From contig JAJXWD010000004.1 of the NCBI GenBank assembly GCA_021781835.1, positions 1-64,000 of the forward strand: a DNA stretch of 64,000 nt. The letters are read 5' to 3'. Every line of letters begins with the position of its first letter. Position 1 is the stretch's first letter. The position numbers and the translations under genes were made by a program. This document shows, in pieces, positions 6,447 through 60,488 of this stretch. The notes below the pieces were generated by a model. The model worked only from the letters and a program-made list of their open reading frames with translations. It did no database searches and was not told where the DNA came from. Source of the DNA: Pseudomonadota bacterium (GTDB taxonomy: Bacteria > Pseudomonadota > Alphaproteobacteria > Acetobacterales > Acetobacteraceae).

Positions 6447-6499
6447 CTTTTCCCGGAAGTTCCGGGGGGCGGTTGAACACAGGCGCTGAGCGGGGGCTC

Positions 6500-7756
6500 A
6501 TGCTCAATAATTATTATCATGCCACCGCCAAGGTGGCGTTCGAGGCCGACCGGCTCGATGGCGGCCAGAGCGTGGATGTCGCCATCATCGGCGGCGGCAT
6601 CACCGGCGTCTCGGCGGCGCTGCATCTGGCCGAGCGGGGGGTTTCGGTCGCGCTGCTCGAAGCGCACGAGATCGGCTGGGGGGCTTCGGGGCGCAATGGC
6701 GGCCAGGCCTTGCCGGGGTTTGGCGCCTCCATGCACAAAATCCACCAGCTGGTGGGCGCCGACGCCGCCAAACAGCTCTGGGACATGTCGGTCGAGGCGG
6801 TGGATTTGCTCCACGCCCAGATCGCGCGGTTCGACATCCCCGCCGACCCGGTGCGCGGCTATCTGCACGCCGCCATCAAACCGCGCCATGTGCGCGATCT
6901 GAAGCTCGAGCAGGAGGAGCTGGCCTCCTATGGCGCGCCCGTCGGACGGCTGCTGGAGGGGGCGGAGCTGCGCGCCCGGCTCGATTCGCCGCGCTATCTG
7001 GCGGCGCTCGAGGATAACATCTCGGGCCATATCCACCCCTATAACTACACGCTGGGCCTGGCCAGGGCCGCCCAGGCGGCGGGGGCGAAGCTTTATGCGC
7101 GTGCCAAGGTCAGCCATGTCGCGCAGGGCGAGACGCTCACCCTGCGGGCGGGCGGGCACGACATCCGGGCCAAATATCTGCTGGTCGCGGGCGGGGCTTA
7201 TCTGGGCGGGCTGCTGGCGGGCATCGCGGGCTATATCATGCCGGTCGGCACCTACATCATGGCCACCGAGCCGCGCGCCGACGTGGCGGCGCTGATCCCG
7301 GGCAACGAGGCGGTGGCCGATCTCAATTTCGTGCTCGATTATTTCCGCCGCTCGCCCGATGACCGCATGCTCTTTGGCGGGCGCGTGTCCTACTCCACCC
7401 TGCCGCCGCCAAGCCTGGGCGCCGCCATGCTCAGGCGGGCCGCGCGGGTGTTTCCCCGCCTGGCCGATGCGCGGGTTGAGTATGTGTGGGGCGGCAATGT
7501 CGATATCACCGTCAACCGCGCGCCGCATTTCGGGCGGCTGGCCGCCAATATCTTGTTTGCCCACGGGTTTTCGGGCCACGGGCTGGCGCTCACCGGGTTG
7601 GCCGGCAAGCTCGCCGCCGAAGCGATTGCCGGCCAGGCCGGGCGGTTTGATGTGTTTGCCCGCATTCCCCATGCGCGCTTTCCCGGCGGGCGGGCCTTGC
7701 GCATGCCCGCGCTGCTGCTCGCCACCTCATGGTTCCGGCTGCGCGATCTGTTGTAA
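6500..7756 (+). CDS. puuB: FAD-dependent amine oxidase (PuuB-like)
   Basis: This 418-residue flavoprotein of the DAO family has the dinucleotide-binding motif VAIIGGGITGVSAALHLAE near residue 27, ASGRNGGQALPGFG after it, and the C-terminal FAD motif HGFSGHGLALTGLAGKLAA. PuuB oxidises gamma-glutamylputrescine to the aldehyde with release of ammonia and hydrogen peroxide. The ATG at 6500 gives the typical start; an in-frame start at 6473 would add nine residues. The pathway's aldehyde dehydrogenase and hydrolase are not in the window. Confidence 0.85.
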   Translation: MLNNYYHATAKVAFEADRLDGGQSVDVAIIGGGITGVSAALHLAERGVSVALLEAHEIGWGASGRNGGQALPGFGASMHKIHQLVGADAAKQLWDMSVEAVDLLHAQIARFDIPADPVRGYLHAAIKPRHVRDLKLEQEELASYGAPVGRLLEGAELRARLDSPRYLAALEDNISGHIHPYNYTLGLARAAQAAGAKLYARAKVSHVAQGETLTLRAGGHDIRAKYLLVAGGAYLGGLLAGIAGYIMPVGTYIMATEPRADVAALIPGNEAVADLNFVLDYFRRSPDDRMLFGGRVSYSTLPPPSLGAAMLRRAARVFPRLADARVEYVWGGNVDITVNRAPHFGRLAANILFAHGFSGHGLALTGLAGKLAAEAIAGQAGRFDVFARIPHARFPGGRALRMPALLLATSWFRLRDLL

Positions 7757-7830
7757 GACCAGTCAGCCCCGAGGCTGACTGGTCTGCGCGTGGGGGTGGT
7801 GGGGCGGCCACGCGCAAAATAAAAGAGGTG
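7757..7830 (-). repeat. Partial 126-bp-family unit, inverted
   Basis: The stretch begins right after the oxidase stop codon with GACCAGTCAGCCCCGAGGCT and continues through GGGGCGGCCACGCGCAAAAT. It corresponds to the reverse complement of the right-hand part of the 58997-59122 unit. The segment forming the third hairpin (ACCATCCCGCCA) is missing. It directly abuts a fuller unit. Confidence 0.75.
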
Positions 7831-7958
7831 TACCCGTCAGCCCCGAGGCTGTCGGGTATGCGCGTGGGCGTTGGTGGGGTGGCCACGGGCACACTCAAAG
7901 CGTCATACCATCCCGCCACCGGACGCGATCGAGTCAAACATTTGGCGGGATGGTATGA
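7831..7958 (-). repeat. Full but diverged 126-bp-family unit, inverted
   Basis: This unit carries all three hairpins: CCCGTCAGCC...GGCTGTCGGG, a GCGCGTGGGC / GCCACGGGC pair, and ATACCATCCCGCCA / TGGCGGGATGGTAT around a loop containing CGGACGCGATCGAGTC. It is the reverse complement of the tandem units at 58997-59248, with scattered substitutions. The remaining sequence to 8081 (including CAGGAGGTGCCTG before the stress gene) shows only a ribosome binding site. Confidence 0.8.
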
Positions 7959-8081
7959 TATGCCCTCCGGCCAGGGTATCGCGGCGCGGCAAATCCAGGG
8001 CCGGCTGGTATGAGCTTGGCAAACCGCCGGGGGGGTGCGCTATAGTCGGGGTGCCATGGCCCAGCTTACAGGAGGTGCCTG

Positions 8082-21893: not shown

Positions 21894-23148
21894 GCAGGCC
21901 GCTGCACAACCCACCTATTGTAGATAGATTTTCTTTTTCGGGCGGTTCTGGCGGGCGCGAGGTATGTCTCTCCTGTTGCCTGTTCTGGGCCTGCCCGCTG
22001 CATTACGCGGGCTGTTGGCTGAGTAGTTTTGGCAGTCTGACGAGGTTGTAGGCTGCGGTGAAGAAGCTGAAGATGGCGGCTGATTTGGTAAGGCCCTTGA
22101 CTTTGAACTTGGTCAGCCCGGCGCTGGCCTTGGCCCATCCGAAGACCTCCTCGAGGCGTTTTCGGCATCGCTGGCTTATCTCATAGCCGGGATGGCGCAG
22201 CGTGCGGTTGTCGATGGCGGTTTTGCGGCGTTTGCCGGTTTTGGAGATGGTGCCATTGACGGCGATATGCGGCGTCACCTTGCGCGCCCGCAATTCACCC
22301 ACGAAGTCAGCAACATCGTAAGCCTTGTCGGCACCTAGCGTGATGCGCCGGGCTGAAGGGCGGCGGTCGAGCATGGCCAGCGCGGCCTTGCGCTCGGCCG
22401 TGCCGGTAGCGTGGGTGAGCGTGCTGTCCACCACTAATCCATTACGCTTCTCCATCAGCACATGCGCCATGTAGCACAGCCACGAGGACTGGCCGTGGCC
22501 CTTGCGATACAGCCGCGCGTCCGGGTCGGTGGTTGAGGCATGCGTCTCGTTGCTGCGCGTCTCGCCACGGAAATTGCGCTCGGCATTGCGCCCCAAAGGC
22601 GGTGCGGGCGGCGCGCCGCCTTCATCCTTGGGCACAAAACTCTTCATGCTCGCCCAGGCGTCGATCAGCGTGTCATCCACCGAGAAATGCTCAGACGACA
22701 GCAGCCGCTTCACCCGCGGCAGCGCCAGCAATCCAGCCAGAAAGGCGCGCGCCACATCAGCCTGCAACAGCCGGTCCCGGTTATGGGTGAAGCCCGTCGC
22801 GTGCCACACGGAGGCATCCATCGAAAGCCCAACAAACCAGCGGAACAGCAGGTTATAGTTGATCTGCTCCATCCGCATCCGCTCCGAGCGCACAGAGTAC
22901 AGCGCCTGCAACAACGTCGCCCGCAGCAGCATCTCAGGCGGGATCGAAGGACGGCACGTGGCAGAATAAAGCGCCGAGAAACTGCCGCTCAACCCCGCCG
23001 GAACCTCATCCGCGGGGACGCGCTCCTCAAGACGCACAAAACTGAAAAGCTCGTCCCCAAAACCAGACCGGCCACGCATACCAACTCCATTCAGGAGAAT
23101 GGAATCAGTCAAACCAGGGAAAAGTGAGCGTTTTGCAGCGGCCTGCTA
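21892..23148. mobile_element. IS5-like insertion sequence
   Basis: The element is bounded by perfect inverted repeats: GCAGGCCGCTGCA at 21894-21906 and TGCAGCGGCCTGC at 23134-23146, each with an outer TA (giving 15 bp, TAGCAGGCCGCTGCA). The outer TA on both sides may be a target duplication of 2 bp or part of the ends. The span of about 1.25 kb contains one complete transposase gene on the minus strand. It interrupts the methyltransferase gene. Confidence 0.88.
22003..23079 (-). CDS. IS5-family transposase
   Basis: This 358-residue DDE transposase has an N-terminal DUF772-like domain (SATCRPSIPPEMLLRATLLQ) and a DDE core starting at FSVDDTLIDAW. TLGADKAYDVADFV supplies the second acidic residue, and RCRKRLEEVFGWAK the final glutamate with the IS5-style YREK-like region. 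The frame is intact, so the element could be active. The ATG at 23079 with TGGAG upstream is preferred; a TTG at 23112 would add 11 residues. Confidence 0.9.
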   Translation of the reverse strand: MRGRSGFGDELFSFVRLEERVPADEVPAGLSGSFSALYSATCRPSIPPEMLLRATLLQALYSVRSERMRMEQINYNLLFRWFVGLSMDASVWHATGFTHNRDRLLQADVARAFLAGLLALPRVKRLLSSEHFSVDDTLIDAWASMKSFVPKDEGGAPPAPPLGRNAERNFRGETRSNETHASTTDPDARLYRKGHGQSSWLCYMAHVLMEKRNGLVVDSTLTHATGTAERKAALAMLDRRPSARRITLGADKAYDVADFVGELRARKVTPHIAVNGTISKTGKRRKTAIDNRTLRHPGYEISQRCRKRLEEVFGWAKASAGLTKFKVKGLTKSAAIFSFFTAAYNLVRLPKLLSQQPA

Positions 23149-58749: not shown

Positions 58750-58995
58750 ATAACCAAAAGTTTTTTGGGGCCGCCTGCTCGGGGCGCTTGAACCCGTGGC
58801 GCTCTCCTCCTGCTCGGATCGCTTGAACCAGTGGCGCTCCCCTCGCAGGTTTACAAAAAAGGGGCGGAGTTTTGGGGCGCTTTTTATAAAACTGAGCCGC
58901 GCGCGCCATTGGTTCGAGCGTGCGGCGAAGCGCCAAACTCCGCAAAAATATTTAATAATTTCAATTTTTGTGGGGGAGGCTGTTTAAAACAGTCT
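58750..58995 (+). repeat. Composite element interrupted by nested 35-bp repeats
   Basis: The flanks match the full element (AAAAGTTTTTTGGGGCCGCC at 58757-58775; AAAAAAGGGGCGGAGTTTTG; GGGGCGCTTTTTATAAAA; the CCGCAAAAATATTTAATAAT tail). Where the first hairpin should continue there are two tandem 35-bp units (58774-58808 and 58809-58843, 31 of 35 bases equal). In the second hairpin an inverted related piece (about 58892-58928, sharing CGCTYGAACCARTGGCGC) is inserted. A GTTTAAAACAGTCTCTTA tail ends the stretch. Confidence 0.75.
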
Positions 58996-58996
58996 C

Positions 58997-59122
58997 TTAT
59001 ACCATCCCGCCAAATGTTTGATTCTTCGCGTCCGGTGGCGGGATGGTATAAATCTTTGATTTTGCGCGTGGCCGCCCCACCAACCCCACGCGCGCACCAG
59101 TCAGCCTTAAGGCTGACCGGTA
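58997..59122 (+). repeat. 126-bp three-hairpin unit, first tandem copy
   Basis: Hairpin 1 has 16-bp perfect arms TTATACCATCCCGCCA and TGGCGGGATGGTATAA around a loop with TTCTTCGCGTCC. Hairpin 2 pairs GCGCGTGG with CCCACGCGC around CCGCCCCACCAA. Hairpin 3 is CAGTCAGCCTTAAGGCTGAC. No frame of note runs through. It lies just downstream of hpnE. Confidence 0.85.
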
Positions 59123-59248
59123 TTATACCATCCCGCCAAATGTTTGCTTCTTCGCGTCCGGTGGCGGGATGGTATAAGTCTTTGATTTTGCGCATGGCCG
59201 CCCCACCAACCCCACGCGCGCACCAGTCAGCCTCAGGGCTGACGGGTA
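59123..59248 (+). repeat. 126-bp three-hairpin unit, second tandem copy
   Basis: It repeats the 58997-59122 unit with about six substitutions, all outside the 16-bp arms of hairpin 1. It ends 13 bp before the hpnE stop codon. It may terminate hpnE or process its message. Confidence 0.85.
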
Positions 59249-59261
59249 TTACAATTCACCC

Positions 59262-60488
59262 TTACACCCGGCGCGGCTGGTTTGGCTCGGGGGTATCGTC
59301 GGTCGGGCGGATGAGCGCCATGGCGGCGGCGTTGCCTGAGCGGATGGCGCCTTCGATGGTGGCGGGCAGGCCGGTATCGGTCCAGTCTCCGGCCAGCACC
59401 ACGTTGGGGTTGGTGGTGCGGGTGCCGGGGCGGCGGGTGATTTGCGCGGGGCTGGTGACCATGGTGGCGCGCTTTTCCCACAGCACGCGGTAGAGCGGCA
59501 GCTCGGGGGACAGGGAAAAAGCCTTGGCCAGCTCCGCCCAGACGCGCTGGGCGATGACGTCGGTGTCGATTTCGAGGTAGCGGTTGGCGGCCGAGATGGT
59601 GACCGAGACGATGCCGTTGCGCACGAACACCCATTCGGCCAGCCCGCCGATCAGGCCCCAAAATCCGGCCTCGCCCGGATCCATGCTGTATTTGAAATGC
59701 AGATTGCAGATGCTCTCGAACTCGGTGGGCACGGTGAGGCCGGGCAGCAGCTCGGCCGCCACCCAGGGCGGCACCGCCAGCACCGTGGCCTGGCCTGGGG
59801 TCAGCTCGGTGACGCGCTCGCCCAGGCGGATTTCGGCGCCGCGCGCGCGCAGCCATTCGAGGGCGGGGTCGATGAAGGTTTCGGAGAGGCCAAGGCGCGC
59901 CCAGCGCGGCAGCGAGGCATAGCCGCCGCGCTCCAGCGTCTCGGAGAGCACGGTTTTGAGCGGCTGGGCGGCGGCCTTCTCGGGCATGGTGTTGAGCGCG
60001 GCGATGGCCAGCGGCTTGAGCAGCTTGTGGTAGAGCGGGCCATTGACCGTGCCGCCCAGCGCCGAGGCGATGTTTTCGGCCTTGCCGGCCGAGCGCAGCT
60101 TGAGCAGGGCCTTGTAATGCATGAGCCCGGTGCCGGGCACGCGCCGGGAGCGGAAGAACACCCACCATGGAAAGCTGCCCTGGTTGAGCCGGAGCGTCCA
60201 GTTTTCGCCGTTTTCGATGTTACAGAAGGGAAAGATCGGCTCGTTGGGGCCGATGAGGGAGCGGCGCGCGCCGATGCGGTGGAGATAGGAGAGGGTGGAG
60301 ATGTTGCCCGATAAAATCAGGTGGTTGCCATTGTCGATCCGGCAGTCGAGATGTTTGTCGAAGTAAGAGCGGGCGCGGCCGCCGGCGAAATTGGCGGACT
60401 CGAACACCACCACATGGTGGCCCAGTTCAGTCAGCTGACACGCGGCGGCGAGGCCGGACAAGCCGGCACCAATGACATGAACGCTCAT
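59262..60488 (-). CDS. hpnE: Hydroxysqualene dehydroxylase HpnE
   Basis: This 408-residue FAD-dependent enzyme completes squalene formation from presqualene diphosphate via hydroxysqualene, with HpnC and HpnD. The N-terminal FAD motif is VIGAGLSGLAAACQLTELG followed by VVFESANFAGGRARS; the C-terminal FAD motif is VVLAGDWTDTGLPATIEGA. The ATG at 60488 fits the FAD motif start. It is the last gene of the hpnABCDE order. Confidence 0.93.
   Translation of the reverse strand: MSVHVIGAGLSGLAAACQLTELGHHVVVFESANFAGGRARSYFDKHLDCRIDNGNHLILSGNISTLSYLHRIGARRSLIGPNEPIFPFCNIENGENWTLRLNQGSFPWWVFFRSRRVPGTGLMHYKALLKLRSAGKAENIASALGGTVNGPLYHKLLKPLAIAALNTMPEKAAAQPLKTVLSETLERGGYASLPRWARLGLSETFIDPALEWLRARGAEIRLGERVTELTPGQATVLAVPPWVAAELLPGLTVPTEFESICNLHFKYSMDPGEAGFWGLIGGLAEWVFVRNGIVSVTISAANRYLEIDTDVIAQRVWAELAKAFSLSPELPLYRVLWEKRATMVTSPAQITRRPGTRTTNPNVVLAGDWTDTGLPATIEGAIRSGNAAAMALIRPTDDTPEPNQPRRV

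What the first reader, a model, noticed from the sequence alone, without database searches (positions are those of the whole stretch)
58997..59248. Exact tandem 126-bp three-hairpin repeat
Two units of exactly 126 bp differ at only about six positions, and each folds into three hairpins, one with 16-bp perfect arms. An inverted, diverged pair lies 51 kb away at 7757-7958. Conservation is greatest in the arms, which suggests selection on RNA or DNA structure. I do not recognise the family. It could be a BIME/REP-like element, a structured RNA module or an unclassified MITE.
Basis: partly seen in the sequence, partly recalled or inferred. Interest (0 to 1): 0.72.

Follow-up and report, generated by a model that had tools for sequence, protein, structure and literature searches.

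The report
Three-hairpin mobile repeat beside stop codons
The tandem repeat is two copies of a small gene-less jumping DNA element with three hairpins, found in dozens of copies in this acid-loving bacterium and in scattered other bacteria, often landing exactly in a gene's stop codon without breaking the gene.

Summary
The repeat is real: two 123-bp elements at 59000-59122 and 59126-59248, each flanked by TTA, 95% identical, each with three hairpins. The genome is an Acidocella (Acetobacteraceae) with some 40-50 copies or pieces.

The evidence fits a non-autonomous mobile element (MITE-like), not a RAYT-dependent REP, and gives no support for an RNA gene. Its ends are TACC...GGTA and it makes a 3-bp TNA target duplication. 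Flanks are identical in 33 of 39 copies in Acidocella STC_51, 32 of 39 in other genera and 13 of 20 here (each above shuffles). Eleven of 11 inspected relatives lack the insert at the window's second locus; in the closest, the insertion point is the upstream gene's stop codon.

The design is unusual. The middle hairpin, which was also my search key, is nearly constant across genera. Both terminal hairpins change between species but stay paired (110 double-changed cells, shuffles 35). Elements often sit exactly at stop codons, hairpin C next to the stop: 19/30 in other genera, 10/18 here, but only 5/32 in the STC_51 burst (not significant).

The mobilising transposase was not found. Mismatches show no G-U bias, so selection looks DNA-level. 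Ten searches of an open-access library found no description.

The parts
58997..58999 (.). TTA, left copy of the target duplication of unit 1
   Evidence: TTA/TTA flanks; sequence
59000..59122 (+). Element copy 1 (TACC...GGTA, 123 bp)
59000..59048 (+). Hairpin A of copy 1 (terminal; species-specific arms)
59049..59063 (+). Linker of copy 1 (T-rich on this strand)
59064..59093 (+). Hairpin B of copy 1: core conserved across genera (8-bp arms, 14-nt loop)
59095..59122 (+). Hairpin C of copy 1 (other terminal hairpin)
59123..59125 (.). TTA shared by the two copies
59126..59248 (+). Element copy 2; its nearest relative among 20 own full copies is copy 1 (95%), next best 89%; both carry GCACC at the start of hairpin C
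59249..59251 (.). TTA, right flank of copy 2
7754..7756 (+). TAA stop codon of ORF 6473-7756; the insertion point (TGA in the closest relative)
7757..8010 (-). Inserted composite block absent from 11 of 11 inspected relatives; ends GGTA followed by TGA
7831..7955 (-). Full A-B-C unit inside the composite block
7757..7824 (-). Extra partial B-C unit abutting the stop codon

Best explanation
The repeat is two tandem copies of a non-autonomous DNA transposable element (MITE-like), which I call the three-hairpin TNA element. It inserts at TNA trinucleotides and duplicates them. Its ends are two different hairpins, A and C, whose outer tips TACC/GGTA and adjoining arms act as species-specific terminal inverted repeats. 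The inner hairpin B is a nearly invariant core. SHOWN: boundaries, target duplication, recent amplification in relatives, an insert-free site, compensatory changes, rarity inside long frames. INFERRED: mobilisation in trans by a DDE-type transposase not found here, inferred from the duplication. INFERRED: arm changes are kept symmetric because each hairpin must stay palindromic in DNA, either because a protein reads both arms or because quasi-palindrome repair copies one arm onto the other. INFERRED: because TAA and TGA are TNA, insertion into a stop codon restores it, so such insertions are harmless and are kept as the 3' end of the gene. The window's tandem pair most likely arose by local tandem duplication of one inserted copy, since the two units share a private change.
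For: Copies: 51 BLAST pieces in the own genome, the last five of them opposite-strand echoes. In STC_51 all 40 scored candidates are 94-100% identical over 112-124 bp. Target duplications: 33/39 in STC_51 (shuffle mean 14.9, 0/20000); 32/39 in other genera (mean 11.9, 0/20000); 13/20 own (mean 7.6, 22/20000). Insert-free site: 11 of 11 inspected relatives lack the block at 7757-8010. In G007 (89% identical over the gene query) the stop TGA runs straight into the sequence that follows GGTA-TGA in the window. Hairpins beside the core: arm score >=12 upstream in 65/120 and downstream in 56/120 loci, against 4/425 control windows. Covariation: 94.3% of cells paired, 19 of 33 pairs with double changes, score 0.345 against 0.113 (0/500). 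Ends alike within a species: 5.8 of 8 against 4.3 shuffled (13 species; 4/20000). Insertions avoid long frames: 4/34 against 272/312. Stop codon is the target: 19/30 other genera, 10/18 own, 5/32 STC_51, against 19/181, 13/120, 41/456 TNA sites nearby and outside long frames; C hairpin at the stop in 27/34. Annotated example: Rhodovastum plasmid NZ_OW485602.1.
Against: No autonomous partner was found: 15 of the 25 transposase loci fetched were examined for a TNA-TACC...GGTA-TNA frame and none had it; genes between close copies looked ordinary, judged by eye. IS1031-group elements share the TNA duplication (passage of PMC12016507), but the one end sequence quoted there (GAACCTGT...) and the one I saw in Elioraea (TGAGACC...) are not TACC. 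Six of 39 STC_51 copies, seven of 39 in other genera and seven of 20 own copies lack identical flanks. Of four solo hairpin A copies in STC_51 with both flanks clear (L075-L078), one has equal triplets. A conserved middle with divergent ends is the reverse of an ordinary MITE. In STC_51 the stop-codon excess is not significant (P 0.17). 'Stop codon' was scored on open frames of at least 100 codons, not on gene calls, and one counted own case (copy 2 of the window, 133 codons) is probably a spurious frame because the neighbouring ORF ends at 59262.
Confidence: 0.78

Rival explanations
1. A REP/BIME-type element: hairpin modules mobilised by a RAYT tyrosine transposase, arranged as mosaics after genes.
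For: Palindromic modules that keep pairing while sequence changes, mosaics (A-B-C-B-C, A-B-A, solo A, solo C), position after genes. The RAYT paper describes the same compensation in REPs (passages of PMC2817692).
Against: PF01797 found in only 5 of 38 Acidocella genomes and not in STC_51. None of the five RAYT-like loci has a B-like core in the stretch fetched (3.3 kb each), and their few ATACC sites do not look like the element. A correlated 3-nt duplication is not expected: known IS200/IS605 members lack terminal inverted repeats and larger target duplications (passage of PMC2817692).
Confidence: 0.1
2. A structured non-coding RNA or 3' UTR module under RNA-level selection (terminator, ribosome-stalling or mRNA-stabilising), spread by duplication.
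For: Strong covariation, fold z -7.5, 3'-end location with hairpin C at the stop codon in 27/34. Between tandem genes the element is mostly antisense to the genes: 9:2, 7:3 and 14:3 (rough gene calls).
Against: G-T mismatches do not exceed A-C (29 and 36 own; 12 and 18 across species), so the A-to-C strand shows no wobble tolerance. No Rfam hit at gathering. A permissive scan of one STC_51 copy gave 12 weak matches, best Thr_leader (24.6 bits, gathering 55) and Rhizobiales-2 (21.4, gathering 40), all below their curated scores. No canonical terminator was found at the window pair. RNA function alone does not make target duplications.
Confidence: 0.08
3. Tandem insertion rather than tandem duplication explains the window pair: the second element jumped into the TTA duplication of the first.
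For: The two copies share one TTA, as expected if TNA is the target. In Elioraea an IS with a TGA duplication sits in the TGA next to another element.
Against: The two copies are each other's nearest relatives (95% against at most 91% to any other of 20 own full copies) and share GCACC at the start of hairpin C, not seen in the other own copies printed.
Confidence: 0.25

Closest known systems
MITEs of IS5/IS1031-type or PIF/Harbinger-type transposases
   Same: Short, non-coding, inverted-repeat ends, 3-bp TNA target duplication (IS1031 group: passage of PMC12016507; PIF/Harbinger recalled)
   Different: Ends begin TACC, unlike the two IS1031-type ends seen here; each end is itself a full hairpin; the middle, not the ends, is the conserved part; no partner IS found
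REP/BIME elements with RAYTs (PMC2817692, passages; PMC3733652, one passage and start of abstract)
   Same: Palindromic modules, mosaic arrays, compensatory arm changes, high copy, near gene 3' ends; E. coli REPs within 15 nt of stop codons affect translation (PMC12306157, passages)
   Different: 3-bp target duplication, no RAYT found in STC_51, three-part fixed order, zero distance to the stop codon in many copies. CGTC repeats are reported missing from Acetobacteraceae (passage of PMC3733652)
Rhizobial ABC/RIME mosaic elements and ERIC (recalled, not fetched)
   Same: Intergenic multi-palindrome repeats of about 100-130 bp (recalled)
   Different: Sequences not compared here; ERIC's similar length (recalled, 126-127 bp) is not evidence of kinship
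Rfam Rhizobiales-2 RNA (RF01723)
   Same: Weak full-length alignment to one STC_51 copy, 21.4 bits
   Different: Far below the gathering score of 40; one of 12 weak matches in that scan. The scan of eight other loci was too large to show so weak a match, so it does not test recurrence

Membership tests
MITE | Short non-coding element in many interspersed copies | tested here: met
   123 bp; 51 pieces own, five of them opposite-strand echoes; at least 40 in STC_51
MITE | Target-site duplication | tested here: met
   TNA, 33/39, 32/39, 13/20
MITE | Terminal inverted repeats | tested here: met
   TACC or TGCC tips plus 5.8 of 8 next positions within species, shuffled 4.3; weak in Elioraea YS (3/8) and Neoroseomonas (2/8)
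MITE | Shares ends with an autonomous element | tested here: inconclusive
   None in 15 of 25 transposase loci examined; only three transposase families sought, in 3, 5 and 38 genomes
IS1031 group derivative | 3-bp TNA duplication | tested here: met
   group property from PMC12016507 (passage)
IS1031 group derivative | Ends matching those of the group | tested here: not met
   Ends TACC; compared with GAACCTGT and TGAGACCTGTG only
REP/BIME with RAYT | Cognate RAYT gene in the genome | tested here: not met
   PF01797 not found in STC_51 (93% complete), present in 5 of 38 genus genomes, none beside the element
REP/BIME with RAYT | Palindromic units in mosaics outside genes | tested here: met
Catalogued RNA family (Rfam 15) | Match at gathering score | tested here: not met
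   0 matches in the window
ERIC / rhizobial ABC-RIME | Sequence homology | not tested
   No reference sequences at hand

The most novel reading that the evidence does not exclude
A distinct class of bacterial transposon in which the enzyme reads hairpin shape at the ends plus a fixed core hairpin rather than conserved end sequence. It inserts preferentially and in one orientation into stop codons, so that it lands without damage and becomes the 3' end of the host gene.
Probability: 0.2. Interest if true: 0.82.

Novelty: new variant of a known kind. Interest (0 to 1): 0.62.

Why it matters
The element reverses the usual MITE pattern: constant middle, changing but always palindromic ends. Its target, TNA, includes two stop codons, which gives a simple way for a transposon to land safely in compact genomes. 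Near-identical copies point to recent amplification in at least two lineages (Acidocella STC_51, Elioraea Yellowstone). The mobilising enzyme, the role of the core and the stop-codon bias are therefore open to direct test. It also shows that strong base-pair covariation can arise in what looks like a DNA element, a warning for RNA discovery screens.

Tried and rejected
RNA family: Rfam at gathering and permissive; rejected. RAYT: PF01797 in 38 genus genomes and a pattern look at five loci; rejected as partner. Autonomous IS: end patterns in three Acidocella genomes and Elioraea, both lists cut; DDE_Tnp_1 in three genomes and DDE_Tnp_1_2 in five; a frame search in 15 of the 25 transposase loci (13 DDE, 2 RAYT-like); ORFs near close copies, judged by eye. 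Nothing with matching ends. A 1-kb pair of ends in Elioraea (L248) proved to be two separate elements with an ordinary-looking gene between. A transposase remnant (67-codon frame) lies close to a solo hairpin A in STC_51 (L287), and the own L284 transposase (best match IS4 family, 110.7 bits, just under the cut-off of 115) lies near a copy; neither has the ends, so both are taken as neighbours.

Class-wide covariance search: 5 of 385 genomes, only the own one strong; per genome only 9 candidates were scored, so this is insensitive. The core pattern was used instead. Plasmids: one record. Phages: none. Literature: (open-access library only), with passages read in PMC3733652, PMC2680597, PMC10969869, PMC12016507, PMC12306157 and PMC2817692; the rest was seen as search listings. 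No description of this element was seen. PMC12306157 counts 1,369 REPs in the alphaproteobacterium Lichenicola cladoniae without giving their sequence in the passages I saw, so overlap with that catalogue is possible.

Rows dropped before counts. In one search, loci with upstream hairpin score under 8, downstream under 6, or no clear tip (58 of 120 kept; 39 of those outside Acidocella). In one search five loci were left out by hand and one (L186) was not relocated. In one search the wobble count used the best 37 of 58 rows, one place counted twice. In one search, 34 of 39 STC_51 insertions had enough flank, 32 of 39 STC_51, 18 of 20 own and 30 of 34 others. The first look at stop codons used a looser control (43/672, 25/338, 40/406); one search is the stricter one. 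The neighbour-gene baseline is small and noisy (14, 25 and 25 points; divergent 12, 2 and 7); in the own genome it has about as few divergent pairs as the elements do, so avoidance of divergent (promoter) regions is only suggestive. Neighbours were undetermined for 10 of 39 STC_51, 2 of 20 own and 4 of 34 other elements.

Full report
OBSERVATION. The two 126-bp periods are as described: 58997-59122 and 59123-59248, 95% identical, 16-nt perfect arms. Copy 1 folds into three hairpins far better than shuffles on either strand. The natural element is 123 bp, TACC...GGTA, with TTA before, between and after the two copies. The second locus (7757-7958 in the finding) is on the minus strand: a full unit at 7831-7955 plus an extra B-C part.

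WHERE IT OCCURS. The window lies in a 2.9-Mb Acidocella genome. BLAST gives 51 pieces in the own genome, the last five of them opposite-strand echoes, with 40 of 84 candidates scored. A covariance model finds 58 matches in 40 own loci, including opposite-strand echoes of the palindromes and one place fetched twice. Among 61 genomes, 24 have a match, all in the genus; of the relatives, only G002 (Acidocella sp. STC_51) lists many full-length copies, and G011 one. In STC_51 all 40 scored candidates are 94-100% identical to one copy. They lie in Acidocella, Elioraea, Neoroseomonas, Plastoroseomonas, Roseomonas, Rubritepida and Rhodopila, in several unnamed MAGs, and also in Hyphomicrobium, Hyphomicrobiaceae, Devosia and Rhodobacteraceae MAGs. 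With one mismatch it is found in 53 of 397 Acetobacteraceae genomes (25 of 102 genera), the reversed control in one listed genome, and in 2 of 385 genomes drawn over the class, one of them the own genome. So it is patchy.

ANATOMY. The flanks of the core were not part of that pattern, yet they show the same plan. Inverted repeats scoring at least 12 occur upstream in 65 of 120 loci and downstream in 56 of 120, against 4 of 425 control windows. An alignment of 25 elements chosen from several genera gives 94.3% paired cells and 19 of 33 pairs with changes on both sides. It has 110 doubly changed cells (shuffles 35) and a covariation score of 0.345 (shuffles 0.113, slid partners at most 0.081). 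The middle stem varies at essentially one pair, C-G or T-A. That near-constancy of B is partly ascertained by the query pattern. In 20 own copies, collected by BLAST of the whole unit, B is still among the most conserved parts. The outer arms of A and C resemble each other within a species more than between species (5.8 against 4.3 of 8; 13 species; 4 of 20000 shuffles), as transposon ends should. Elioraea YS (3/8) and Neoroseomonas (2/8) are exceptions.

IT TRANSPOSES. In STC_51, 33 of 39 copies have identical flanking triplets; the left triplet is TNA in 39 of 39, the right in 38 (shuffle mean of identical pairs 14.9, none of 20000 as high). In other genera it is 32 of 39, with TNA on each side in 35 (mean 11.9), in the own genome 13 of 20 (mean 7.6; 22 of 20000). 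At the window's second locus 11 of 11 inspected relatives lack the insert. In the closest by this gene, G007, the stop TGA is followed directly by the sequence that in the window follows ...GGTA-TGA; the window's left copy of the triplet now reads TAA. The inserted block is therefore 7757-8010. G007 also has no core match at up to one mismatch.

WHERE IT LANDS. Of 34 STC_51 insertions with enough flank, 4 interrupt a long open frame, against 272 of 312 control points. The TNA triplet is the stop codon of an open frame of at least 100 codons in 19 of 30 other-genus insertions, 10 of 18 own and 5 of 32 STC_51. The control is TNA sites nearby and outside long frames: 19 of 181, 13 of 120, 41 of 456; Fisher P 1e-9, 5e-5 and 0.17. 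In 27 of 34 such cases hairpin C is the end at the stop (P 0.0008). In Elioraea YS it is 7 of 10, all on the C side (control 3 of 15, P 0.018; these overlap the other-genus set), although those copies are 98% identical and so recent; age alone does not explain the difference from STC_51. One annotated example agrees: on the Rhodovastum plasmid the element ends GGCA-TCA, and TCA is the reverse of the annotated stop of the minus-strand CDS beginning at 1588 of the locus; the left flank is also TCA. In the window, locus 2 abuts the TAA of ORF 6473-7756. For the main pair, the stop call rests on a 133-codon frame that is probably spurious, since the neighbouring ORF ends at 59262. By rough neighbour calls, elements lie between convergent genes 37 times, tandem 38, divergent 2 (18/11/0 STC_51, 7/10/1 own, 12/17/1 others; 16 undetermined), and in tandem settings run against the genes 30 of 38 times. 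These calls and their baseline are rough, and in the own genome the baseline too has few divergent pairs (2 of 25).

RNA OR DNA. If the A-to-C strand worked as RNA, G-U mismatches should outnumber A-C. They do not: 29 and 36 in the best 37 own rows (one place counted twice), 12 and 18 across 25 sequences. By hairpin the own counts are 15 and 11 (A), 8 and 9 (B), 6 and 16 (C). The excess in C would fit pairing on the other strand, but is small. Rfam is silent at gathering. Selection, or arm-copying repair, therefore seems to act on DNA.

THE TANDEM PAIR. Copies 1 and 2 are each other's nearest relatives among 20 own full copies and share GCACC where the other own copies printed have ATACC or other variants. 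Tandem duplication of one insert is likelier than two insertions, though a second insertion into the first copy's TTA is possible.

WHAT IS MISSING. The mobilising enzyme. RAYTs occur in 5 of 38 genus genomes and not in STC_51. DDE_Tnp_1 and DDE_Tnp_1_2 searches gave few loci; 15 of 25 transposase loci were examined for matching ends and none had them. TNA duplication is a stated property of the IS1031 group of IS5 (passage of PMC12016507), but the ends seen for that group differ. An apparently intact IS with TGA duplication in Elioraea sits in the TGA right beside an element, which shows shared target taste, not kinship; that it is of the IS1031 group is my reading of its ends and duplication.

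VERDICT. A mobile, non-autonomous, three-hairpin element of a MITE-like kind with a REP-like look. Known in kind, unusual in build: constant core, exchangeable palindromic ends, stop-codon landing. I found no prior description in the searches listed under Tried and rejected; that library lacks most subscription journals, and ISfinder was not available.

Noticed in passing
L282:1180-2478 (Elioraea Yellowstone): A DDE transposase (DDE_Tnp_1) element with an 18-bp perfect end TGAGACCTGTGCGCGGGA sits in the TGA directly beside a three-hairpin element.
   Followed up: partly
L249-L254, L256-L261, L267 (Elioraea Yellowstone): A second subfamily with core loop CCCTTGAGCCCC in place of CCCACCAGCCCC, a different hairpin A (TGCCGGCCGGGC) and nearly the same hairpin C.
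   Followed up: partly
L005, L006, L027 flanks (own genome): Another palindromic repeat, like AGAGCGGGTGCGTCATAACGCATCCCGCTCT with TGAAATTGATCGTTAAAATATAAC, recurs next to several copies.
   Followed up: no
58770-58860: A short imperfect direct repeat (GCTCGGGGCGCTTGAACCCGTGGCGCTC-like) just upstream of the pair.
   Followed up: no
22042-22509: A DDE_Tnp_1 transposase match (380-codon frame, minus strand) in the window, without TACC/TNA ends.
   Followed up: partly
L030/L043, L094, L160: Core hairpin B alone in tandem arrays of about 40-45 bp in the own genome and Acidocella RAIPG19.
   Followed up: no
core B, minus strand (59064-59093): The conserved loop reads GGTTGGTGGGGCGG and might form a two-layer G-quadruplex.
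   Followed up: no
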